From Amaricoccus macauensis (lineage in GTDB: Bacteria; Pseudomonadota; Alphaproteobacteria; Rhodobacterales; Rhodobacteraceae): a DNA stretch of 64,000 bases. Position 1 is the stretch's first letter; each line of letters opens with the position of its first letter. The stretch is from contig NZ_JACHFM010000001.1 in the NCBI RefSeq assembly GCF_014201905.1, positions 1,254,994-1,318,993 on the forward strand, written 5' to 3'. Shown piece after piece: positions 1 through 10,407 of the stretch. The notes under the pieces were generated by a model that worked only from the letters and a program-made list of their open reading frames with translations, ran no database searches and was not told the origin of the DNA. The position numbers and the translations under genes were made by a program.

Positions 1-928
1 CGAGTGCCGCCGGCGCGGTAAAGACGGGCGCCTCCGGCGTGGTGGACCCGCCCTCCGCACCGACACGCACATGCTCCGGCCGGATACCGAGCGTGACGGC
101 GTCGCCGACCTCGACCCGGCGGGCGAGCGGCACCGCAACGGGCGTGCCAAGCCCGAGGTCGATGAGCGCGATCCGGCCGGAAAGCTCCGCCACCCTGCCG
201 GGGAGGAAGTTCATCGCCGGTGATCCGATGAAACCCGCCACGAACAGGTTCTCCGGCCGCTCGTAGAGATCGAGCGGGCTGCCGACCTGCTCGATCCGGC
301 CGGCGTTCATCACCACGATGCGATCGGCGAGCGTCATTGCCTCCACCTGATCGTGGGTGACGTAGATCATCGTCGAGGCAAGCTCGGCCTTCAGGCGGGC
401 GATCTCGACCCGCATCCCCACGCGCAGCGCGGCGTCGAGGTTCGACAGCGGCTCGTCGAGCAGGAAAAGCCTCGGCTTGCGGGTGATTGCCCGGCCGATC
501 GCCACGCGCTGGCGCTGGCCGCCGGAAAGTTCGCCCGGCCGCCGGCCGAGGAGCCGCAGGAGGCGCAGCTTTTCCGCCGCCCCGGTCACGCGCTCGCGGA
601 TGTCGGGCCTCGGCGTCCGGGCGATCTCGAGCCCGAAGCCCATGTTCCGCTCCACGGTCATGTGCGGATAGAGCGCGTAGGACTGGAAGACCATGGCAAC
701 TCCGCGCTCGATCGGCTCGGCCTCGCTCACGTCCTCGCCGTCGAGCCGGATGCGGCCCGAGCTGATGGATTCGAGGCCGGCGATGATGCGGAGCAGCGTC
801 GACTTGCCGCAGCCCGACGGGCCGACGAGGACGCAGAACTCGCCGTCGCGGACCAGGAGCGACAGCTCCGGGATGACGGTGAGGGCGCCGTATCGCTTGG
901 TGATCCGCTCGATCGAAAGCGTCGACAT
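1..928 (-). CDS. Carbohydrate ABC transporter ATP-binding protein (partial)
   Basis: ATPase subunit of a CUT1-type sugar importer (MalK/UgpC/MsmK family), acting on the inner face of the membrane. The visible 309 residues begin [14 protein letters not shown]. They show Walker [10 protein letters not shown] (about 36-44), a Q-loop region [12 protein letters not shown], signature LSGGQRQR, Walker [14 protein letters not shown], an H-loop THDQVEAM and the start of the C-terminal regulatory (TOBE/OB) region. The C-terminus lies beyond the left edge. It begins 4 bp after the stop of the upstream permease, so it is the last visible gene of the operon. Family assignment is firm; the substrate is not encoded in this subunit. 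Confidence 0.93.
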
Positions 929-932
929 GGGG

Positions 933-1766
933 TCAGCCTTTCACCGCGCCGGCGAGCAACCCGCCCACGAACGCGCGCTGCACGATGATATAGAGCAGGA
1001 CCAGCGGCAGCGCGATCAGCGTCAGCACGGCGAAGAGCGCGCCGGGGTTCGACATGTAAAGACCCGAGTACTGCATCGGCACGATCGTCAACGTCTTCAT
1101 CTCCGCCTCGGTCATCACGATGAGGGCAAGGAAGAACTCGTTCCACGTGACGATGAACTGCCAGATCGCCACGAAGACGAGGGCGGGACGCACCAGCGGC
1201 AGTGCCACGTGCCAGTAGGTCTGCCACGCGGTGCAGCCATCGACGCGCGCCGCCTCGAAGAGCTCGGAGGGCGCGTCCTCCATGAACGCCTTGAGGATGA
1301 CGATGCCGAAGGGCACGCCGAGGGCGGCATAGGGAAAGATCAGGCCCCAGTAGGTGTTCACCCAGCCGAAGGTCCTGAGCAGGATCGCGAGCGGCAGGAC
1401 CAGCGAGGCGAGCGGCACCATGAGCGTGGTCAGGAGCGTCGCATAGAGCACCGTCACGCCGCGCAGCCGCAGCACCGCCGCGGCGAAGGCAAAGAGCGAC
1501 GAGGCGGCGACGACGATGGCGACGGTTGCGAGAGTGACAACGAGGGTGTTGAGAAAGATCCGCCCGAGCGGGTTGTCGCGGATCACCATGACGAAGTTGT
1601 CGAAGGTGACGGGCCAGGTGAAGAGCGCGGGGTCGAACGCCTGCGCCGGTGTGCGCAGGCCGACCGACAGCATGTAGATCTGCGGCACCATCCAGAGCGC
1701 GAGGACGAGAAAGAGCACCGCATGGACGGTGAGGCTGCGGAGCCTGGCGCGGGTGGCAGGGGTCAT
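933..1766 (-). CDS. Carbohydrate ABC transporter permease (MalG/UgpE-like)
   Basis: Inner-membrane permease of the CUT1 importer, 277 residues starting [15 protein letters not shown], with about six hydrophobic segments. The cytoplasmic EAA loop that docks on the ATPase is visible as [20 protein letters not shown]. The size and single N-terminal transmembrane helix before the first periplasmic loop fit the MalG-type partner. Its ATG overlaps the stop of the other permease by 4 bp (ATGA), implying translational coupling. A much longer in-frame reading upstream of this ATG only shadows the neighbouring gene. Confidence 0.92.
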
Positions 1767-2686
1767 GCGCCCCCCTTCGCGGGTGCGAGGCGCGCGCCGA
1801 GGACGGCAATCTGCACCAGCGACAGCGCGAGGGCGAGCAGGAGCACGATCACCGAGAGCGTCGCGCCCTGTCCGGTGTCGCCGAGCACGAAGCTCTGCCT
1901 GAAGATATGGGTGCCGAAGACTTCGCTGGCGTGGTTCGGGCCGCCGCCGGTCATCAGGTGGACGATGGGAAAGGTCTGGAGCGTGCCGATGATGCCGAGG
2001 AGCAGCAGCGACCGGGTGGCGGGCGCCAGCATCGGCACCACCACGCCGGTGGCGAGACGCCAGCCCGAGGCGCCGTCGACGCGAGCGGCGTCGAGCACCT
2101 CGCCGGGCAGATTGGCGAGCCCGGCGATGTACATGAGCATGGAGAACCCCGTCCACTGCCAGACGTTGACGAGGATGAGGGCATAGATCGCCTGCGACGG
2201 CTCGGCGATCGGCGAGGAGACCATGGTGATGCCAATCCGCGCCAGATACGCCTGCGCGATGCCGTAGTAGGGCGCGTAGATCTGCACCCAGACGAGGCTG
2301 ATGACCGAGACGGACGTGACCACCGGCAGGAAGAACGCGGTGCGGAAGAAGCCGCGCAGGCCGTGGGTGTGCCGCTCGATGAACCACGCGAGCAGGCCGC
2401 CGATCAGCATCTGCACCGGAATGGTGATCGCGCCCCAGAGCACCATGTTGCGCACCACGATCCAGAACGTCGGATCGACGAGCACCGCGCGATAGTTCGC
2501 GAGACCGGCCCACGTCTCGCTTGCGCGATTGCCGGTGTAGAGGCTCTGCCCGGCGACCCAGAGGATCGGATAGGCGATGAAGACCACGAAGAGCAGCACG
2601 GCCGGCAGGGCAAAGAGATAGAGGCGTTCGGCCCGCAGCCGTGACCGGGGCGGAGCCGGTTCAGATGCCGCGCGGCTGACGGACAT
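1763..2686 (-). CDS. Carbohydrate ABC transporter permease (MalF/UgpA-like)
   Basis: Second permease of the importer, 307 residues. After a charged N-terminus it has about six transmembrane segments beginning LYLFALPAVLLFVVFIAYPILWV. The EAA-type loop reads DAARVDGASGWRLATGVVVP. It pairs with the MalG-like permease it overlaps by 4 bp. It is separated from the binding-protein gene by a 64-bp gap that contains a terminator-like hairpin, so it is probably made at a lower level than the binding protein. Confidence 0.92.
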   Translation of the reverse strand: MSVSRAASEPAPPRSRLRAERLYLFALPAVLLFVVFIAYPILWVAGQSLYTGNRASETWAGLANYRAVLVDPTFWIVVRNMVLWGAITIPVQMLIGGLLAWFIERHTHGLRGFFRTAFFLPVVTSVSVISLVWVQIYAPYYGIAQAYLARIGITMVSSPIAEPSQAIYALILVNVWQWTGFSMLMYIAGLANLPGEVLDAARVDGASGWRLATGVVVPMLAPATRSLLLLGIIGTLQTFPIVHLMTGGGPNHASEVFGTHIFRQSFVLGDTGQGATLSVIVLLLALALSLVQIAVLGARLAPAKGGA

Positions 2687-2710
2687 GTTGGACCTTTCGC
2701 GGGGAAAAGA

Positions 2711-2745
2711 GGCGGCCGGGCCGGGAGGGTGAGCCCTCGGCCGCC
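2711..2745 (-). terminator. Hairpin between binding-protein and permease genes
   Basis: GGCGGCCG (2711-2718) pairs perfectly with CGGCCGCC (2738-2745), and a smaller AGGG/CCCT hairpin sits in the loop. Read on the minus strand the stem is followed by a T-rich tract (TCTTTTCC). This position, just after the solute-binding protein stop, is where sugar ABC operons often carry a partial terminator or RNA-processing hairpin that keeps the binding protein in excess. That role is inferred. Confidence 0.55.
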
Positions 2746-2750
2746 AGTGC

Positions 2751-4043
2751 TCAGTTGGCTGCGAGGGCCTTGTCGGTCGCCGCCTGTACCTGCGCCAGCG
2801 CCGCCTCCGGGTCGAGGCTGCCGGCCGCGACCCCGGCGAGGCCGTTGTCGAGGGCTTCGGCCACCGCGGGCGAGGCGAAACGCTGGTTCTCCGCCTTCGG
2901 CAGGTCGGCCATGAAGCGGTCGTAAAGCGCGCGGGTGTGATCGGTGATGTCGCCCTCGGGCTGATAGCCCGGCACGGCCGGCAGATCGTTCAGCGCGTTC
3001 AGCGCCTGTTGCAACCCGACGCCGTTGGTGAGCTCCGCGAGAAAGGTCCATGCGGCGGGGTTGTCCGCGCCGTTCTTCGTCAGTCCATAGCCGATGTCGA
3101 TGCCGCCGACCGGCGGGCTCGGCGGGTTCCCCTCCCTGACCGGCGGCAGGTAGAAGAAGTCGAACCCGGCCATGCCGTCGACGAACTCCGACAGGGGCGG
3201 CGGGAACTTGCTCTCCTGCATCCACCACGAGCCGAGGGCCATCATGCCCACCCTGCCCTGCGCGAGAAGCTGGGCGCCCGTCGGATAGGCGTGGGCGCCA
3301 AGCGCGCCCTTCTGGAAGATGCCGTCGTCGAAGAGCGCCTTCCACGCGGTCATCGCCTCGACGAGTTCAGGCGACGTCCACGGCACCTCGCCGGTCTGAG
3401 CGCGGTCGGTGATGCCGGGGGAGAACTGGTTCGCGAGCATCAGGAAGACGTTCTCGTTCTGCCAGCCGTCGGCAGCGCCCTGGAACATCGGGATGTAGCC
3501 GCCTTCGGTCAGCGCATTGGCGGCGGCCTTCAGCTCGCCGTAGGTGGTGGGCACGGAAAGCCCGAGATCGGCGAAGATCTTCGTGTTGTACCAGATCGCC
3601 AGCACCTGGCTTTCCTGCGGCACCATGTAGGCGTTGGCGTCCCCCGCCGGGTTGCCCATCAGCATCTGCTTGCGGTTGACGGGGAAGATCTTCTCCGCCC
3701 AGTCGTCGCCCCACTCCTTCGCGGCGAGCGCGTTCACCGGGGCAAGGTCTTCGCGGTACTGCTGGGTGAGCGAGCCCGGCTGCAGGCCGATCACGTCGGG
3801 CAGGCTGCCCGAGGCGGAGGCGGCCTTGAGGGCGGTGATGTATTCCGGCGAATAGTTGTAATACGTGAACTTCACGTCGATGCCGGGATGCGCGGCCTCG
3901 AAGGCCTCGATCGACTTTTCCATCGTCGGCTGATGGAACCAGGACCAGACGGTGACTTCCTGCTGGTCCGCGGCCTCGGCCACGGAGATTGCCAGCATCG
4001 AGGCGGCTACAAGGCTCGCCGCCGAGGCAAGGGGCCGTTTCAT
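2751..4043 (-). CDS. Extracellular sugar-binding protein of ABC transporter
   Basis: Periplasmic solute-binding protein (family 1, MalE/UgpB-like), 430 residues. The start MKRPLASAASLVAASMLAIS opens a Sec signal peptide with likely cleavage near SVAEA-ADQQ. The mature part begins EVTVWSWFHQPTMEKSIEAF, typical of family 1 proteins, and carries several Trp/Tyr residues suited to sugar stacking. An earlier in-frame ATG would put 37 residues before the signal peptide and is rejected; GGGGAG lies just upstream of the chosen ATG. The position in the cluster says it binds the substrate whose catabolism the kinase, dehydrogenase and aldolase carry out; the ligand is unknown. Confidence 0.92.
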   Translation of the reverse strand: MKRPLASAASLVAASMLAISVAEAADQQEVTVWSWFHQPTMEKSIEAFEAAHPGIDVKFTYYNYSPEYITALKAASASGSLPDVIGLQPGSLTQQYREDLAPVNALAAKEWGDDWAEKIFPVNRKQMLMGNPAGDANAYMVPQESQVLAIWYNTKIFADLGLSVPTTYGELKAAANALTEGGYIPMFQGAADGWQNENVFLMLANQFSPGITDRAQTGEVPWTSPELVEAMTAWKALFDDGIFQKGALGAHAYPTGAQLLAQGRVGMMALGSWWMQESKFPPPLSEFVDGMAGFDFFYLPPVREGNPPSPPVGGIDIGYGLTKNGADNPAAWTFLAELTNGVGLQQALNALNDLPAVPGYQPEGDITDHTRALYDRFMADLPKAENQRFASPAVAEALDNGLAGVAAGSLDPEAALAQVQAATDKALAAN

Positions 4044-4127
4044 GACCTTCGGGTCTCCCCTGGATTGCTTTTCTGCCGGCGCCTCTGGCGGGGAGCCGGT
4101 CGACCTTGGGAGGCAGGCCCCGGGGTC

Positions 4128-4150
4128 GGGAGGCGGGCCGGCCGCCTCCC
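4128..4150 (-). terminator. Hairpin between aldolase and binding-protein genes
   Basis: A 9-bp perfect stem: GGGAGGCGG (4128-4136) and CCGCCTCCC (4142-4150) around a 5-nt loop, in the 119-bp gap between the aldolase stop and the binding-protein ATG. No U-tract follows, so it may attenuate or stabilise the mRNA rather than terminate fully. Confidence 0.45.
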
Positions 4151-4162
4151 CCACGCCGGGCC

Positions 4163-5203
4163 TCAGGCCGCCTTGGCGGCGGCGGTCTTCAGCACGTCCT
4201 CGGTCACGATCCGGTCGTCGCCGAGCGCGCGCAGCGGCTTGATGCCGAGCTTCTGGAGCTCACCGTGGTAGGCGCGAACGGCTTCTTCCGGGGCGATGGC
4301 GCCGTCCACCACCTGCCGCATGAGCGCGACGAGGTGGAGCGGCGATTCCGCGAGGTTGATCTTGCGGCCGAAGAGCGCGACGCGGGCGCCGTAGCGCTCG
4401 CCCTGCGAGAGCAGCTCGAAGGTGTCGCGGGTGGTGCCTGCCCCGCCGCCGAGGATGCCGACGATGAGCGAGGGGTCGAAGCTCGCCAGCTCTTCCAGCG
4501 CCTTCGGGCCGTTGAACGGAATCTTCAGGAATTCCGGCCGCTCCGCCTTGGTGAGGCCGGCGAGCGAGGACAGGATCATGTCGTTCAGGTACTGGCCGAG
4601 CTGCTCCTGATCCATGCCGATGTCGATGTTCGGATTGAACACCTCGTAGAAGTACCGGAAGTTGTTGGCCTGTGCTTCCTCGCGGAACACCAGGAACTCT
4701 TCGAGCGCGTGGGTGTCGCGCTCGAGATCGTTCAGGAACGTCACCGAATAGAGCCCGAGGTCGGTTCCGGTGATCGGCGCGCCGGGTTCGGGGTACGGGG
4801 TTCCGGTCATCGCGCGCGAAATCGTCACCGAGCGGAACGGCTGCGACGGGAAGTCGCGGTAGGTGCCGTGGCGCACCCCGGCCCAGCAGTCGGTGGAGAG
4901 GTTGGCGCGGATCGCCGGCTTCACCGCCGAGCCCTCGAACGTGCCGCGCTCGTGCAGCAGTTCGAGATTCGACACCGAGACGAGCATGATGTCGAGGATG
5001 TCCTGCTTCACCAGCGCGTCGATCTGGTCGAGGAACTCGGCGCGGGTGCGCTGGCGCGGGCCGCTGGCGTCGGTGTGGTCGAACCCGGTACAGGCGGCGC
5101 CCGCGCCGGCGTCTGCATCCTTGGCGTCGGCGATCAGAAAGTCCGTGGGCTTGTAACGGCCCTCGCGGATGTTCGTGAGCTTCGTGTCCATTCGCGTCGT
5201 CAT
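4163..5203 (-). CDS. Class I aldolase-like protein (LacD/DhnA family)
   Basis: Predicted TIM-barrel aldolase of 346 residues. The C-terminal half carries the signatures of DhnA/LacD-type Schiff-base aldolases: FLKIPFNGPKALEEL with candidate lysine K227, then VGILGGGAGTTRDTF (about 248-262) and GARVALFGRKINLAESP (about 272-288). These bind a sugar phosphate and cleave it by retro-aldol reaction in the family. It is encoded with a sugar kinase and a polyol-type dehydrogenase, so it probably cleaves the phosphorylated ketose made by them. The N-terminal about 160 residues are not diagnostic. Start chosen at the ATG preceded by GGGGGATCC; a second ATG lies 4 codons in. Exact substrate unknown. 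Confidence 0.72.
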   Translation of the reverse strand: MTTRMDTKLTNIREGRYKPTDFLIADAKDADAGAGAACTGFDHTDASGPRQRTRAEFLDQIDALVKQDILDIMLVSVSNLELLHERGTFEGSAVKPAIRANLSTDCWAGVRHGTYRDFPSQPFRSVTISRAMTGTPYPEPGAPITGTDLGLYSVTFLNDLERDTHALEEFLVFREEAQANNFRYFYEVFNPNIDIGMDQEQLGQYLNDMILSSLAGLTKAERPEFLKIPFNGPKALEELASFDPSLIVGILGGGAGTTRDTFELLSQGERYGARVALFGRKINLAESPLHLVALMRQVVDGAIAPEEAVRAYHGELQKLGIKPLRALGDDRIVTEDVLKTAAAKAA

Positions 5204-5298
5204 GGATCCCCCTTCGGGGCCGCGTGCATTCCCGCGACCCGCATCGCGAGGCCTGCCGCGGCCTCTCACGCGGAACTGATGGTTCCCTCGAGTCTTGA

Positions 5299-5326
5299 GA
5301 TATAAGTCCCTGTCAAACTCTGTCAA
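5299..5326 (-). promoter_or_regulatory. Predicted promoter upstream of the aldolase gene
   Basis: On the minus strand: -35 TTGACA (5326-5321), 16-bp spacer, -10 TATATC (5304-5299), about 90 bp upstream of the aldolase ATG. It lies in the 129-bp gap after the regulator gene, so the aldolase-transporter half can be transcribed separately from the kinase half. Confidence 0.6.
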
Positions 5327-5327
5327 A
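5309..5327 (-). promoter_or_regulatory. Candidate DeoR-type operator (copy 1)
   Basis: Minus-strand TTTGACAGAGTTTGACAGG is a direct repeat of TTTGACA with a 10-bp period, overlapping the -35 element. Fifteen of 19 positions are identical to the motif at 8202-8220 upstream of the kinase gene. Direct repeats on one face of the helix fit DeoR/GlpR-family operators. The linked DeoR-family gene is the obvious candidate regulator. Confidence 0.5.
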
Positions 5328-5332
5328 GCCTT

Positions 5333-6160
5333 TCACGCGGTCAGATGTTCCACCTCATCCACGACCGGCACCACCGTCACCTTCACGTCGATGGCGGCGA
5401 GTGCGTCGAGGTGCTCCGGCGCGATCCCGTCATCGGTGATGACTTCGTCGATGTCGGAGAGATCGCCGAAGGCGCTGAAGCACGGCGCGCGGAACTTGGT
5501 GCTGTCGACGAGCAGGATCCGCCGCTCCGCCGAGCGCATCATCGCCCGCTTCAGGGCCGCGACCTCGATCGTCGCGTCGGTCAGGACCGACCCGCTGACC
5601 GCAAGCGCGCCAATGAGGCAGACGTCGGCGTGGATGCCGGCGAAGAACGCCTCGCCGGGCGGGCCGGCGAGCATGGTCGAGCCCGGCCGCACGGTGCCGC
5701 CGGGCACGATGACCCGCCAGCTCGGGACGCCGGCGCTGACGAGCGCGATCTCGAGGCTGTTCGTGACGACGGTGAGAGGCATGGCGCGGCGGGCGACGAC
5801 GGAGATCGTCTCGAGCACGGTCGAACTGCTGTCGCAGATGATGCTCTGCCGTGGCGAGAGCCGGTCGGCGGCCTCAACGCCGATGCAGCGCTTCTGCATC
5901 CGGCACATGGCCTGATGCAGCGAGAACTCCCCCTCGAACGCCGCGCGGGCGGGCGGGATCAGCAGCGCCCCGCCGTGGGTCCGCTCGAGATACCCCGCCT
6001 CGGTCAGGTGTTCGAGGTCGCGGCGCACCGTCGACTGCGAGCCGCCGATCACCTCGGCAAGCTGCTGGATCGAGGCCGGCCCATGCGCGCGCAGGTGTTC
6101 GAGGATCAGCGCCCGCCGCTTGGCGGGGACGAGCTCGACACGTTTGGGCGGGAGCTGCAT
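5333..6160 (-). CDS. DeoR/GlpR family transcriptional regulator
   Basis: Sugar-phosphate-responsive repressor, 275 residues. The N-terminal winged helix (about 10-60) reads KRRALILEHLRAHGPASIQQ through STVRRDLEHLTEAGYLERTHGGAL, the DeoR signature. The C-terminal DeoRC effector domain contains CDSSSTVLET, TNSLEIALV, PGGTVRPGSTMLAGP and LLVDSTKF. The ATG at 6160 is used; a GTG at 6169 overlaps the upstream dehydrogenase stop (GTGA) and is also possible. It most likely controls this cluster, responding to a phosphorylated intermediate. Two matching candidate operators are found at 5309 and 8202. Confidence 0.9.
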   Translation of the reverse strand: MQLPPKRVELVPAKRRALILEHLRAHGPASIQQLAEVIGGSQSTVRRDLEHLTEAGYLERTHGGALLIPPARAAFEGEFSLHQAMCRMQKRCIGVEAADRLSPRQSIICDSSSTVLETISVVARRAMPLTVVTNSLEIALVSAGVPSWRVIVPGGTVRPGSTMLAGPPGEAFFAGIHADVCLIGALAVSGSVLTDATIEVAALKRAMMRSAERRILLVDSTKFRAPCFSAFGDLSDIDEVITDDGIAPEHLDALAAIDVKVTVVPVVDEVEHLTA

Positions 6161-6165
6161 GGGCG

Positions 6166-6939
6166 TCACCAGATCGTGTAGCCGCAATCGACCAGCAGCA
6201 CCGTGCCGGTGCACGCGCTGGCCGCGTCGCTGGCAAGGAACAGGATCGCCGAGGCGATCTCGTCGGCGCGCGCCACCCGCTTCATCGGCGTGCCCTCCAT
6301 CCAGTGGGGCATCAGAGTCGGGTCGTCGAAGCCGCCGCGCGACATGAGCGTGTCGACGTAGGTCGGCGCGACCGAGTTCACCCGGACGCCGCGCGCGGCC
6401 CATTCGCCGGCGAGCGAGCGGGTCATGTGGTGCACCCCGGCCTTGGCGGCGTTGTAGTGCGCCTGTCGCTGCGGCTTGTTGGAGATGACGCCCGACATCG
6501 AGCCGACCGTGACGATCGAGCCGCGCCCGCGTTCGAGCATGGGGCGCCCGAACTCGCGGCACGACCAGAACGTGCCGTTGAGGTCGATATCCACCACCTT
6601 GCGCCACGCGTCGTCGGACATGTCCTCGCCGCCGGTGTCGGGCCAGGCGATGCCGGCGTTGGCGATCAGGATATCGACGCCGCCATGCCGCGCGTTCGCC
6701 TCCGCCGCCACGCGTCCCACCGCGTCCGGGTCGGTGATGTCGAGGAGCACCGCGCCTACCTCGTGCCCGGCGGCCAGCAGTTCGGCGCGACCGGCTTCGA
6801 GGACCGCAGGATCGATGTCGGAGATGACGACCCCGGCCCCCGCCTCGGCCAGCGCCGTCGCGGTGGCGAGGCCGATACCACGGCCGCCGCCGGTGATGAA
6901 CGCGGTCTGGCCGGTCAGGTCGTATTTCCCGAGATACAT
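6166..6939 (-). CDS. Short-chain dehydrogenase (polyol/sugar type)
   Basis: Classical SDR oxidoreductase, 257 residues. It has the Rossmann motif TGGGRGIG (16-23), Asp at the end of beta-2 (SDID, about 41) suggesting NAD preference, NAG (94-96), and catalytic S147, Y162 and K166. The C-terminus ends DCGYTIW. Such enzymes in sugar ABC clusters usually oxidise a polyol to a ketose (galactitol or iditol type); that is inferred from context. It starts 9 bp after the kinase stop and is followed directly by the regulator, so the three are cotranscribed. Confidence 0.88.
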   Translation of the reverse strand: MYLGKYDLTGQTAFITGGGRGIGLATATALAEAGAGVVISDIDPAVLEAGRAELLAAGHEVGAVLLDITDPDAVGRVAAEANARHGGVDILIANAGIAWPDTGGEDMSDDAWRKVVDIDLNGTFWSCREFGRPMLERGRGSIVTVGSMSGVISNKPQRQAHYNAAKAGVHHMTRSLAGEWAARGVRVNSVAPTYVDTLMSRGGFDDPTLMPHWMEGTPMKRVARADEIASAILFLASDAASACTGTVLLVDCGYTIW

Positions 6940-6948
6940 CGCTTTCCC

Positions 6949-8178
6949 CTAGGCGGCCGCCTGTTCCTTCCGGAGCGCGCCGAGCACCATCAGGCACCCG
7001 CCGGTGAAGGTGTCTCCGAGCCCGAGCGTCGATGCCGGGCGGTCGATGTAGGGCGTCGAGACGGCGACGAAGTGCCAGCCGTCCCGAAGTTCGCTTGCAT
7101 CGAACGGCGGGGGTTCGAAACGGGCGGCGGCGGGGACCGACACCGTGCTGACCGGCCCGCCGGCCTCGGCGCGGGCGGCGGCGAGAAGCGAGCCGCACAT
7201 CAGCGCCTCGCGCTCCTCTCCGGGATCGCCGCGCGTCACCGACGCCGCCCATTCGTCGGCGTGCACGCAGAGCCGCGAGACGCGCAGGCGCTCGGCAAGC
7301 GCCAGCATCGCGTCCGGCGGCGGCACGCCGGGGGCAAGCTGCCGCAGCTCGGAATGACTCATGCCGATCGAGGTGACGACGCCGGCAAAGGCGTCGAGCA
7401 CGCTCTCCAGCCATTCGACGGTCTCGTAGCCGGCCATCTCCATGTGGATGAGCCCGAGGCCCTGCTCGCGCCAGCTGTGACAGAGCGCACGCACCCGCTC
7501 GATCCCCGCGGCGACGTCGTCGGGCGGAATGGCGTGGAAACCGGAGATGAGGCCGGCGCCGGCTGTCGCCGCCAGCTTCGGGGTGTGTCGGTCGAAATCG
7601 GGATCGTCGTCGAGACCGGGGTCGGCGAGGCGGACGATGATCCGCGACGAGCGCGGCGGCACGACGCCCGCGACCGCGACGCCGGCCGAGTAGTCGAAGA
7701 TGTAGATGTCACCCTGTCGCTCGCCGCGTGGCGTCAGGCCCTCGGAGGGAAGGAGGCGATCGCCTTCGAACACCAGCACGCCGGGCGGCAGCTGGGCCAG
7801 CATGTGCGCGCTGCGGTCACCGAGCGAGGTGGCCGCCGGCGCGCCGATGGCCGAGAGCACCCACGCCGCCTGCGCCCCGGTGCCGCCGAGCGAGCACGTG
7901 AGGTCGAGATTTTCCGCCAGCCATTCCGCGCCCTCGGGCCAGGGGAACAGCATCTCGCCGCCGACCCCGCGCGCGACCCGGTCGAGGAGCCGCGCGCCGA
8001 GGGCAGCCGCCTGCAGGGGAGCGTCGGGGGAGAAGAGCGCGCCCGTGCGCGCGAGATCGGTCCGGGCATCGACGCAGGAGACGAAGCCGCCCATGGTCAG
8101 CCTGGCGGCGGCCGCCTTGGCGGGGAACGTCGCGGCGAGGCGCTGATAGGCCCCGGACCAGGTGGCCGACGATCGCAT
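6949..8178 (-). CDS. ADP-dependent phosphofructokinase/glucokinase-like sugar kinase
   Basis: Ribokinase-fold kinase of 409 residues that resembles the ADP-dependent PFK/GK family rather than ordinary PfkB kinases. Seen: GGTGAQAAW (98-106), SGFHAIPP (212-219), IHMEMAGYETVEWL (244-257), the family-like GMSHSELRQLA (272-282) in place of the archaeal GMNEQEL, and the GLGDTFTGG anion-hole/catalytic motif with D389. The ADP-dependent family is best known from archaea and animals; bacterial relatives are mostly unstudied. First gene of the minus-strand cluster, with a promoter and candidate operator directly upstream. It probably phosphorylates the ketose later cut by the aldolase. ADP use is inferred only. 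Confidence 0.7.
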   Translation of the reverse strand: MRSSATWSGAYQRLAATFPAKAAAARLTMGGFVSCVDARTDLARTGALFSPDAPLQAAALGARLLDRVARGVGGEMLFPWPEGAEWLAENLDLTCSLGGTGAQAAWVLSAIGAPAATSLGDRSAHMLAQLPPGVLVFEGDRLLPSEGLTPRGERQGDIYIFDYSAGVAVAGVVPPRSSRIIVRLADPGLDDDPDFDRHTPKLAATAGAGLISGFHAIPPDDVAAGIERVRALCHSWREQGLGLIHMEMAGYETVEWLESVLDAFAGVVTSIGMSHSELRQLAPGVPPPDAMLALAERLRVSRLCVHADEWAASVTRGDPGEEREALMCGSLLAAARAEAGGPVSTVSVPAAARFEPPPFDASELRDGWHFVAVSTPYIDRPASTLGLGDTFTGGCLMVLGALRKEQAAA

Positions 8179-8221: not shown

Positions 8222-8250
8222 TTTATCTTTGGTTCTCCAATCTCGGTCAA
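8222..8250 (-). promoter_or_regulatory. Predicted promoter of the sugar catabolism cluster
   Basis: On the minus strand: -35 TTGACC (8250-8245), 17-bp spacer, -10 GATAAA (8227-8222), about 45 bp from the kinase ATG. The surrounding AT-rich patch stands out from the GC-rich background. Confidence 0.5.
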
Positions 8251-8554: not shown

Positions 8555-9631
8555 CTACCCGCCCGCGCCCCGGGGCCGGATGCGGGTCACGTGCCCCATC
8601 TTGCGCCCCGGCCGGGCCTCAGCCTTGCCGTAGAGGTGCACCCGCGCGCCGGTGAGCCCGGGCGCTGCCTCGGCGTCGGAGCCGAGCAGGTTCACCATCT
8701 CCGCGTCCGAGTGCCGCGCGCCGTCGCCGAGCGGCCAGCCGCAGATCGCCCGGATGTGCTGCTCGAACTGGTCGATGAGGCAGGCGGCCTCGGTCCAGTG
8801 GCCGGAGTTGTGCACCCGCGGCGCGATCTCGTTCACCACGAGCCCGGAGCGGGTGACGAAAAGCTCCACCCCGATCACTCCGACGTAGTCGAGTTCCGTC
8901 AGGATCTTCCCCGCGAGCAGCACCGCGTCCTGCGCCCGGCCGGCCGGAACACGCGCCGGCACCGTCGTCTTGTGCAGGATGCCGTCGCGATGCTCGTTCT
9001 CGCCGGGATCGAACGCCGCCACGGAACCGTCGCCGCCGCGCGCCGCGATGACCGAGATCTCGCGCTCGAAATCGACGAAGCCTTCCAGCACCGAAGGCGC
9101 CTTGCCGACGGAAAGCCACGCCGCGTCGGCCGAGCTGCCCGCGTCGAGCCGGACCTGCCCCTTGCCGTCGTAGCCGAGGCGCCGGGTCTTCAGGATCGAT
9201 GGTGTGCCGATCGCCTCGAGCGCGGTTTCGAGCGTGTCGGTTCCGTCGATCGCCGCATAGGGCGCGGTCGCGAGCCCGATCGCGTTCAGGAAGTCCTTCT
9301 CGGCGATCCGGTCCTGTGCCACTTCGAGCGCCCGGCGCCCCGGCCGGACCGGCACCAGCGGCGCCAGTACGTCAATGGCGGCGAGATCGACGTTCTCGAA
9401 CTCGTAGGTCACCACGTCGACTCCGGCGGCGAAATCGGCGAGGGCGTCCGCGTCGTCCCAGGCAGCCCGCGTCACCTTGTTCGCCACCTGCCCGGCCGGC
9501 GGCTCGGGGGCGGGCTCGTAGACGTGGACCTTCATCCCCAGCCGGGCGGCGGCGAGGGCGAGCATCCGGCCGAGTTGGCCGCCGCCGAGGATGCCGACCG
9601 TGCTGCCGGGGGCGAGAGGGTCAAAGCTCAT
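8555..9631 (-). CDS. purK: 5-(carboxyamino)imidazole ribonucleotide synthase
   Basis: ATP-grasp enzyme of de novo purine synthesis: AIR + ATP + bicarbonate to N5-CAIR. The 358 residues start [24 protein letters not shown], the PurK N-terminal signature. They continue with [43 protein letters not shown] and [15 protein letters not shown], the ATP-grasp active-site region. The start codon lies inside the end of purE (11-bp overlap), so the two are translationally linked and supply consecutive steps. Confidence 0.97.
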
Positions 9632-10109
9632 CGGGGGCCTCCGCGACCGCTGCCGTCTGCGCCGCCCGCCAGGCGTCGAGGCGGGCGGCCAGCCCTTCGT
9701 CGGTCGTGGCCAGCATCGCCGTGGCGAGGAGCGCGGCGTTCGCCGCGCCCGCCGGGCCGATCGCCAGCGTGCCGACGGGCACGCCCTTCGGCATCTGGAC
9801 GATGGAGAGCAGCGAATCCATGCCGGAAAGCGCCTTCGACTGCACCGGCACGCCGAGGACCGGGATGCGGGTCTTCGCCGCCAGCATCCCCGGCAGGTGC
9901 GCGGCTCCGCCGGCACCGGCGACGATGGCGCGAAGCCCGCGTCCCGCCGCCGCCTCGGCATAGGCGAAGAGCCGGTCCGGCGTGCGATGGGCCGAAACGA
10001 TGCGGACCTCGTGCGGGACGCCGAGCGTGTCGAGGATCTCGGCGGCGCCGCGCATGGTCTCCCAGTCGGACTGGCTGCCCATCACGATGCCGACCAACGG
10101 GTCCGCCAT
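9621..10109 (-). CDS. purE: N5-carboxyaminoimidazole ribonucleotide mutase
   Basis: Class I PurE, 162 residues, converting N5-CAIR to CAIR. Diagnostic stretches are [14 protein letters not shown] near the N-terminus, [13 protein letters not shown] with the active-site His, and [14 protein letters not shown]. Upstream partner of purK in a two-gene operon. Confidence 0.97.
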
Positions 10110-10275
10110 GTCGCTCCTCCCCTCGAAAGGGCGCGACCATACTCGGTTCCCGCCCGGCTCGCCAAGGGGGGTGAGGCGCGACTTGCCCTGACGCCCGGCG
10201 CCGGCCGTGCCGCGCGTCAGGGCCGCACCGTGTCTGGAACGCCGCTTCTTTCTCGCGCCGGGGCAGTTTGCCGTG

Positions 10276-10304
10276 TTGACGCCTGACGTTCTTGGGCCTA
10301 ATCA
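10276..10304 (+). promoter_or_regulatory. Promoter of tRNA-Tyr
   Basis: -35 TTGACG (10276-10281), 17-bp spacer, -10 TAATCA (10299-10304). The expected start is about 10 nt before the tRNA 5' end, so the leader is very short. Confidence 0.65.
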
Positions 10305-10321
10305 GCCCTTCGCCGACCTCC

Positions 10322-10407
10322 GGAGGGGTGGCAGAGCGGTCAAATGCAACGGACTGTAAATCCGTCGGGGTAACCCTACGCTGGTTCGAATCCAGCCCCC
10401 TCCACCA
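10322..10407 (+). tRNA. tRNA-Tyr (anticodon GTA)
   Basis: Class II tRNA of 86 nt including an encoded CCA (10405-10407). The acceptor stem GGAGGGG pairs with CCCCTCC. The anticodon stem ACGGA/TCCGT encloses loop CTGTAAA, with GTA at 10356-10358. A long variable arm follows, and the T-arm loop region is GGTTCGAATCC. It stands alone, not in an array. Confidence 0.97.

What the first reader, a model, noticed from the sequence alone, without database searches (positions are those of the whole stretch)
933..8178. Sugar/polyol cluster pairing an ADP-dependent-type kinase with a class I aldolase
The kinase (6949-8178) carries family-like motifs (SGFH, IHMEMAGY, GMSHSEL, GLGDTFTGG) of ADP-dependent PFK/GK enzymes, known mainly from archaea and animals. 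It is encoded with a LacD/DhnA-like aldolase (candidate Schiff-base K227), a polyol-type SDR, a DeoR repressor and a CUT1 importer. Inferred route: polyol imported, oxidised to a ketose, phosphorylated, cleaved to triose phosphate plus an aldehyde. I know of no characterised pathway with this gene set.
Basis: partly seen in the sequence, partly recalled or inferred. Interest (0 to 1): 0.75.

Follow-up and report, generated by a model that had tools for sequence, protein, structure and literature searches.

The report
Archaeal-type kinase in bacterial polyol operon
A bacterial operon, probably for using sugar alcohols, carries a sugar kinase of a type known mainly from archaea and animals beside a protein with an aldolase-like fold that matches no Pfam family, and may form an unstudied way of breaking such sugars into triose phosphate.

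Summary
The kinase (6949-8178, -) is a full-length PF04587 (ADP_PFK_GK) member: 63 bits, cut-off 27, no PfkB hit. Its model (pLDDT 94) matches solved ADP-glucokinases/phosphofructokinases first. Catalytic residues are kept, but NXXE is SXXE. The "aldolase" (4163-5203, -) matches no Pfam family (0 of 29 family members hit DeoC/LacD), yet its model matches class I Schiff-base aldolases best. K227 lies on the sixth strand and is Lys in 51 of 55 family members.

Of 57 kinase copies, 43 lie within 8 kb of this aldolase and 12 of a LacD-type aldolase; one has a class II aldolase about 2 kb away, one is cut by a contig end. In 8 of 14 aldolase loci where this kinase was not found, a PfkB (ATP-type) kinase follows the aldolase (7 scanned, 1 by similarity). 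So this kinase probably does the job of an ordinary ketose kinase. Best reading: polyol import, oxidation to a ketose, phosphorylation (probably at C1), cleavage to DHAP plus an aldehyde. Donor, substrate and phosphorylated carbon are untested. My searches of open-access papers found none on this gene set.

The parts
6949..8178 (-). Sugar kinase of the ADP_PFK_GK (PF04587) family, 409 aa, bacterial subfamily
   Evidence: Pfam 63.4 bits, no PfkB; AlphaFold pLDDT 94.4; Foldseek ranks 1-22 all ADP-GK/PFK; R179, H245, E247, E277, D389 invariant in the 34 rows of A4
6166..6939 (-). SDR dehydrogenase, polyol-type, 9 bases after the kinase gene
   Evidence: adh_short_C2; best PDB relative 3awd putative polyol dehydrogenase E 4e-81, then galactitol dehydrogenase E 3e-58
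5333..6160 (-). DeoR/GlpR family repressor
   Evidence: HTH_DeoR and DeoRC
4163..5203 (-). Putative class I (Schiff-base) aldolase of a family without a Pfam entry; candidate lysine K227
   Evidence: 0 of 29 family members with a DeoC/LacD Pfam hit; model pLDDT 82; Foldseek best hits class I aldolases; K227 is Lys in 51 of 55 rows
2751..4043 (-). CUT1 solute-binding protein
   Evidence: SBP_bac_1 E 5e-29
1763..2686 (-). CUT1 permease A
   Evidence: BPD_transp_1 E 2e-6; UgpA 94 bits, below its cut-off
933..1766 (-). CUT1 permease B
   Evidence: BPD_transp_1 E 3e-18
1..928 (-). ABC ATPase of the importer, cut by the window edge (376 aa in L093 6792-7922); followed outside the window by an L-xylulose-reductase-like SDR (L093 5891-6619) and an IolE-like TIM barrel (L093 5061-5876)
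   Evidence: ATPase named from its similarity to the annotated ugpC genes of L007 and L008

Best explanation
A laterally acquired catabolic operon for a sugar alcohol. The CUT1 importer brings in the polyol; the SDR (perhaps with the second SDR and the epimerase/isomerase-like protein beyond the window edge) turns it into a ketose; the ADP_PFK_GK-type kinase phosphorylates the unphosphorylated ketose, most likely at C1; the new-family class I aldolase forms a Schiff base through K227 and cleaves the ketose 1-phosphate into dihydroxyacetone phosphate and a short aldehyde; the DeoR protein represses the operon. Shown: gene content, kinase family, predicted fold of both enzymes, conservation of catalytic residues, repeated kinase-aldolase pairing with exchange of either partner. 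Inferred: reactions, substrate class, C1 position, ADP as donor, repression.
For: Kinase-aldolase linkage: 43 of 57 kinase copies within 8 kb of the new aldolase, 12 of 57 of a LacD-type aldolase (PF01791 in the 3 scanned); of the other 2, L012 has a class II aldolase about 2 kb away and L019 is cut by the contig end. One Verrucomicrobiota MAG has kinase and LacD-type aldolase in one 749-codon open frame. Partner exchange: in 14 aldolase loci from 13 genomes where the kinase profile found nothing, 8 have a kinase gene directly after the aldolase (7 scanned as PfkB PF00294, 1 by BLAST cluster), one of these (L079) with a mannitol-dehydrogenase-family gene and a CUT1 importer; L081 has FGGY kinase, GlpD-like oxidase and CUT1 importer instead, a set that could also give a ketose 1-phosphate. 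Kinase: D37 and E75 kept; residues aligned with the fructose-6-P phosphate contacts N32, N34, N181 and Q244 of AncMsPFK (list from passages of PMC7948494) differ in the window and in nearly all 34 rows, which suggests an unphosphorylated sugar. SDRs; the first SDR lies within 8 kb of 34 of the 43 aldolase-paired copies.
Against: I found no activity reported for any member of either family branch. The aldolase has no significant sequence similarity to known aldolases and Foldseek TM-scores are moderate (best 0.58 by query length, 0.75 by target length); K28 is even more conserved (55 of 55) than K227. NXXE is SXXE in 33 of 34 kinases. Two of the six phosphate contacts speak the other way: E90 is kept (E75), and the K179 column, Gln in the window, is Arg or Lys in 20 of 34 rows. 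The IolE-like gene could point to a cyclitol or keto-acid route. 9 of the 43 aldolase-paired copies lack the SDR within 8 kb; five of these nine loci have an FGGY kinase gene next to the aldolase (L026 not printed in 59), which this scheme does not explain. Four divergent aldolase relatives have Glu at 227 and lie with TauE and, in the one scanned, a DGOK-family protein.
Confidence: 0.55

Rival explanations
1. Same module, but the sugar is a cyclitol-derived or deoxy-keto acid: the kinase acts like IolC and the aldolase like a 2-deoxy-5-keto-gluconate 6-phosphate aldolase.
For: IolE-like protein at the end of the operon (PDB 3cny, E 5e-12; 68% identical to that of L010; the L010 protein gives 69 bits to iolE, cut-off 290); of four PfkB partners scanned with NCBIfam, two (L083, L086) score best and two (L079, L084) second best with iolC; LacD-type partners match an 8tnf DUF2090 protein best in the PDB, and DUF2090 is proposed to be that aldolase (PMC9007349, passages).
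Against: I saw no IolD or IolB among the genes scanned or annotated (not searched for as such); the SDRs look like polyol/ketose enzymes; a Gfo/IolG-like gene cluster occurs in 7 loci only; all these family scores are far below the cut-offs.
Confidence: 0.15
2. The kinase belongs to the PF04587 fold family but uses ATP (or another donor); the pathway is otherwise as proposed.
For: PfkB (ATP-type) kinases hold the same place in sister loci; position 308, invariant Asp here, aligns with a gap in four canonical PF04587 members, W310 with Phe, and NXXE is SXXE.
Against: R179, HXE, the Glu of NXXE and GXGD, shared with ADP enzymes, are kept; the 22 best structural matches are all ADP-GK/PFK. From recall, the characterised PF04587 members use ADP.
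Confidence: 0.35
3. The 4163-5203 protein is a TIM-barrel enzyme of another kind (thiolase like LsrF, isomerase or epimerase), not an aldolase.
For: Its profile hits LsrF, a thiolase by recall, though weakly (E 0.07); no significant profile match to LacD-type aldolases; TauE/DGOK context of the four divergent members.
Against: LacD-type aldolases stand in its place beside the same kinase family; best structural hits are Schiff-base aldolases; strand-6 lysine in 51 of 55.
Confidence: 0.15
4. The operon is an ordinary fructose/sorbitol route: the kinase makes fructose 6-phosphate or fructose 1,6-bisphosphate for glycolysis.
For: Family name; ADP-PFK and LacD handle hexose bisphosphates (recalled); E90 kept and the K179 column basic in 20 of 34 relatives.
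Against: Other 6-phosphate contact residues differ; no other sugar kinase in the operon to supply a hexose 6-phosphate; an aldolase gene accompanies the kinase in 55 of 57 copies.
Confidence: 0.1

Closest known systems
ADP-dependent glucokinase/phosphofructokinase family (PF04587; 1ua4, 6c8z/6xio, 5od2)
   Same: Fold, catalytic Arg, HXE, Glu of NXXE, GXGD base, sugar-site Asp and Glu
   Different: 400-432 aa in most relatives against 453-511 in most solved chains; Asn of NXXE is Ser; several sugar-phosphate contacts differ; new invariants R183, D308, W310; found in bacterial polyol-type operons with an aldolase; 16-19% identity to solved members
Class I aldolases of the DhnA/LacD/YihT kind (1w8s, 3mhg, 1to3, 2qji)
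   Same: Eight-stranded barrel, lysine on strand 6, GG(G) after strand 7 and GR after strand 8
   Different: No Pfam match and no significant profile-profile match; 10-16% identity in the Foldseek rows shown
SDR plus PfkB polyol operons (recalled: Agrobacterium altritol/galactitol, rhizobial sorbitol and erythritol loci)
   Same: ABC importer, DeoR-type regulator, SDR, kinase
   Different: Kinase of another family; aldolase of an unnamed family
L-xylulose reductase (1pr9, 4egf) and Gox2181 polyol dehydrogenase (3awd)
   Same: Closest solved relatives of the two operon SDRs
   Different: Substrates of the operon enzymes unknown

Membership tests
ADP_PFK_GK (PF04587) | Profile match above the curated cut-off over the whole domain | tested here: met
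   63.4 bits against 27; profile 47-429/430
ADP_PFK_GK (PF04587) | GXGD catalytic base, HXE motif, catalytic Arg (R206 of AncMsPFK) | tested here: met
   D389, H245, E247, R179 invariant in 34 of 34 rows and in 4 canonical relatives
ADP_PFK_GK (PF04587) | NXXE (or DXXE) motif | tested here: not met
   SXXE in 33 of 34, NXXE in 1; E277 invariant
ADP_PFK_GK (PF04587) | ADP as phosphoryl donor, AMP as product | not testable with these tools
   needs an assay
ADP-dependent phosphofructokinase (specificity) | Six fructose-6-P phosphate contacts of AncMsPFK (N32, N34, E90, N181, K179, Q244; PMC7948494) | tested here: inconclusive
   Window: V33, C35, E75, I158, Q155, H215, so 1 of 6 kept; in the 34 rows N32 is Asn in 1, N34 in 0, E90 Glu in 34, N181 in 0, K179 Lys in 7 and Arg in 13, Q244 in 0; loop alignments are uncertain
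PfkB kinases (PF00294) | Profile match | tested here: not met
   no hit at E<=1; locus not among the 11 PfkB places of its genome
DeoC/LacD aldolases (PF01791) / DhnA (NCBIfam) | Profile match above cut-off | tested here: not met
   0 of 29 family members in Pfam; best NCBIfam 15 bits against 241
Class I Schiff-base aldolase fold | TIM barrel with lysine on strand 6 | tested here: met
   eight strands of 3 or more, K227 within strand 225-229; Foldseek best hits; model pLDDT 82, position of the lysine against a solved aldolase not superposed
Class I Schiff-base aldolase | Covalent imine at that lysine | not testable with these tools
   needs borohydride trapping
Polyol catabolic operon | Polyol-type dehydrogenase and CUT1 importer | tested here: met
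   by similarity only:
Polyol catabolic operon | Growth on, or induction by, a polyol | not testable with these tools
   needs culture or expression data

The most novel reading that the evidence does not exclude
A bacterial, laterally mobile polyol pathway via ketose 1-phosphate in which an ADP-using (AMP-forming) kinase of archaeal type has replaced an ATP-using PfkB kinase, working with a previously unrecognised family of class I aldolases: a physiological role for an ADP-dependent sugar kinase outside central glycolysis.
Probability: 0.4. Interest if true: 0.78.

Novelty: new variant of a known kind. Interest (0 to 1): 0.6.

Why it matters
Why some organisms use ADP rather than ATP to activate sugars is an open question, studied (as far as I recall) almost only in archaea and animals. 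Here bacteria, many of them rhizobia and plant- or soil-associated, carry a diverged branch of that kinase family in polyol-type operons, and sister operons hold a PfkB kinase in its place beside the same aldolase family: a natural paired comparison of donor use. The aldolase family is annotated 'hypothetical protein' in the three annotated records where I read its entry and gave no Pfam hit, so a C-C bond-cleaving enzyme family may be recognised and used in biocatalysis.

Tried and rejected
Rejected: kinase as PfkB. Rejected: aldolase as LacD/DhnA by sequence. In one search (four divergent rows left out of the query on purpose) the best local register puts K227 on the lysine of the LacD-set 'LKVEFPG' motif, but at probability 0.05%, so it is not used as evidence of homology; in the LsrF alignment K227 is one column off the target's lysine. 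Weighed and kept as a rival only: phosphofructokinase role on a sugar 6-phosphate. Led nowhere: literature for this gene set; donor-specificity residues in PMC3688580; promoter scan (0 promoter-like sites; 3 terminator-like against 2.7 in shuffles). Dropped rows: L061 (short kinase piece, under the bit threshold) from the 57; L076 (22.6 bits, partial) from the aldolase loci; L011/L046 (one record), L007/L022 and L008/L035 (same or near-identical) are counted apart in the 57, but L011, L022, L035 and L046 were left out of the trees; the first kinase copies of L049 and L053, cut by contig ends, are not in the kinase tree. The 55-row aldolase count leaves out L011 and L046. The order-wide searches scored only about 4-5 candidates per genome and the genome scan used two peptide patterns, so absence is not proof and the 57 is a lower bound.
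Full report
What is there. On the minus strand, 8178 to 1, the window holds kinase, SDR, DeoR regulator, aldolase-like protein, solute-binding protein, two permeases and the start of an ABC ATPase. The window's genome (G000, 4.83 Mb, unnamed by the tool) continues with the rest of the ATPase, an SDR closest in the PDB to L-xylulose reductase, and an IolE-like TIM-barrel protein. The seven complete genes have third-codon-position GC of 0.89-0.93, as expected of genes. The gap between kinase and SDR is 9 bases.

The kinase. It matches PF04587 with 63.4 bits (cut-off 27) and no PfkB; 11 PfkB places are listed in the same genome and this locus is not one of them. A profile of 34 sequences finds the solved ADP-glucokinases and ADP-phosphofructokinases (best E 8e-20). 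The AlphaFold model (pLDDT 94.4) has all of its first 22 Foldseek hits in that family (E 1.5e-26 to 2.7e-18); the next hits, ribokinase-fold enzymes such as adenosine kinase, start at 4e-9. I took key residues of AncMsPFK from passages of PMC7948494 and also aligned four canonical PF04587 members from the window's class. The catalytic Arg, HXE, the Glu of NXXE, the GXGD Asp, the sugar-site Asp (D37) and Glu (E75) are invariant in 34 of 34 rows. The Asn of NXXE is Ser in 33 of 34. R183, D308 and W310 are invariant here and differ in the four canonical ones. Of the six residues that contact the 6-phosphate of fructose 6-phosphate, the window keeps one (E90 = E75); N32, N34, N181 and Q244 differ in nearly all 34 rows, but the K179 column, Gln in the window, is Arg or Lys in 20 of 34. 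I read this as leaning to an unphosphorylated sugar; it is not decisive.

The aldolase. No Pfam family (window protein; 0 of 29 family members with a DeoC/LacD hit), a 15-bit NCBIfam echo and no significant profile-profile match to the LacD-type set. Its model (pLDDT 82) is an eight-stranded barrel with K227 inside the sixth strand. Foldseek's best hits are archaeal class I FBP aldolase (E 4.8e-6), rabbit aldolase, LacD, ADH synthase, YihT and LsrF; 63 hits have E <= 0.001, and of the 50 rows shown the only others are N-acetylneuraminate lyase and a Corynebacterium protein known by locus name (human aldolase rows counted with rabbit). TM-scores are moderate (best 0.58 by query length). Among 55 family rows, some near-copies, K227 is Lys in 51 and Glu in 4, all four from the divergent TauE branch; K28 is Lys in 55 of 55.

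Neighbourhoods. The kinase family was collected from plasmid records (9 records; 7 read) and from one scan of a collection with one genome for each of 84,980 species (48 loci). Over 57 kinase copies in the 56 loci given to the script (one locus, L061, fell under the threshold; two loci hold two copies), 43 lie within 8 kb of the new aldolase and 12 within 8 kb of a LacD-type aldolase (three of the latter checked as PF01791). Of the two left, L012 has a class II aldolase gene about 2 kb away and L019 begins 434 bases before the kinase match, where still shows a piece of the aldolase. These rows are not independent: several are near-copies. The first SDR lies within 8 kb of 34 of the 43. Kaistia soli and Mesorhizobium sp. 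BR1-1-16 carry both kinds of cassette on one stretch. L055, a MAG contig, has kinase and LacD-type aldolase in one open frame of 749 codons; a stop lost through sequencing error is possible.

Partner exchange. In 390 genomes of the window's order the kinase profile finds only the window's genome (also 1 of 101), while the aldolase profile finds 15 of 390. I fetched 14 aldolase loci from 13 of those genomes (own genome and one 22.6-bit partial match left out); no gene in them was labelled as this kinase. Directly after the aldolase lies a PfkB kinase in 8 of 14 (7 scanned, 1 by BLAST cluster with them). L079 adds a mannitol-dehydrogenase-family gene and a CUT1 importer. L081 has FGGY kinase, a GlpD-like oxidase and a CUT1 importer; L080 shares the oxidase cluster and the regulator family, but its FGGY position was not scanned. 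A polyol kinase plus GlpD-like oxidase, or a dehydrogenase plus ketose kinase, can both lead to a ketose 1-phosphate (from knowledge of GlpK/GlpD and EryA/EryB, recalled), which is why I place the phosphate at C1. The remaining four loci (37-40% identity) have TauE (one scanned, others by cluster) and, in the one scanned, a DGOK-family protein; they have Glu at 227 and are probably another function.

History. In the aldolase tree the window protein groups with 19 proteins of Rhizobiaceae, Phyllobacteriaceae and one Pleomorphomonas (94/90, just under the tool's mark for a firm branch), away from the aldolases of its own family, including its own genus. All aldolases paired with this kinase can form one side of one branch, but weakly (72/63). 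In the kinase tree the 39 copies paired with the new aldolase form one group (100/96) apart from the LacD-paired ones. Where relatives carry the same importer type, its binding protein and permeases are 74-85% identical to the window's, and the SDR 65-80%, but the kinase is at most 54% identical. I read this as lateral acquisition of the operon, with a fast-evolving or separately acquired kinase.

Mechanism and limits. The scheme polyol, ketose, ketose 1-phosphate, DHAP plus aldehyde is the simplest that fits importer, SDRs, kinase and aldolase and the exchanges. My own estimates: kinase-aldolase functional link about 0.9, aldolase identity about 0.8, C1 position about 0.6, ADP as donor about 0.6. 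The substrate is unknown; the L-xylulose-reductase-like and polyol-dehydrogenase-like SDRs make pentitols or hexitols likely. Nine of the 43 aldolase-paired copies lack the SDR; the FGGY kinase next to the aldolase in five of those loci is unexplained.

Literature. Searches in the open-access library listed no paper that I recognised, from titles and abstract openings, as treating this gene set; most subscription papers are not held. I saw passages only of PMC7948494, PMC3688580, PMC9007349 and PMC9304392. Public annotation already calls the kinase 'ADP-dependent glucokinase/phosphofructokinase' in 6 of the 9 plasmid records (2 'hypothetical protein', 1 without annotation), while the aldolase is 'hypothetical protein' in L007, L008 and L009.

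Verdict. Real, well supported as a kinase-aldolase module, a new variant of known kinds: a diverged branch of a known kinase family with an unnamed aldolase family in a polyol-type operon.

Noticed in passing
L055:9986-12232: Kinase and LacD-type aldolase in one 749-codon open frame in a Verrucomicrobiota MAG: a natural fusion or a lost stop.
   Followed up: partly
L049 and L053: Two different kinase-aldolase cassettes (LacD-type and new-type) on one stretch, with Gfo-like and IolE-like genes between.
   Followed up: partly
L089-L092: Divergent aldolase relatives with Glu in place of the strand-6 lysine, next to a TauE-family protein and (L089) a DGOK-family protein: probably a different enzyme.
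   Followed up: partly
L018, L023, L026, L027, L059: A ribulokinase-like FGGY gene stands between importer and aldolase where the SDR is missing (L026 by cluster membership only).
   Followed up: partly
window 8222-8250: By eye, TTGACC-17-GATAAA upstream of the kinase start on the minus strand (position checked); the strict promoter scan does not list it.
   Followed up: no
window 8555-10407: purK and an apparent purE upstream of the operon and a tRNA-Tyr gene at 10322-10407 (+); whether the operon inserted near the tRNA was not examined.
   Followed up: no
L002-L005: Four genomes of the window's class carry a canonical PF04587 protein of about 464-475 aa, a second and different bacterial branch of the family.
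   Followed up: partly
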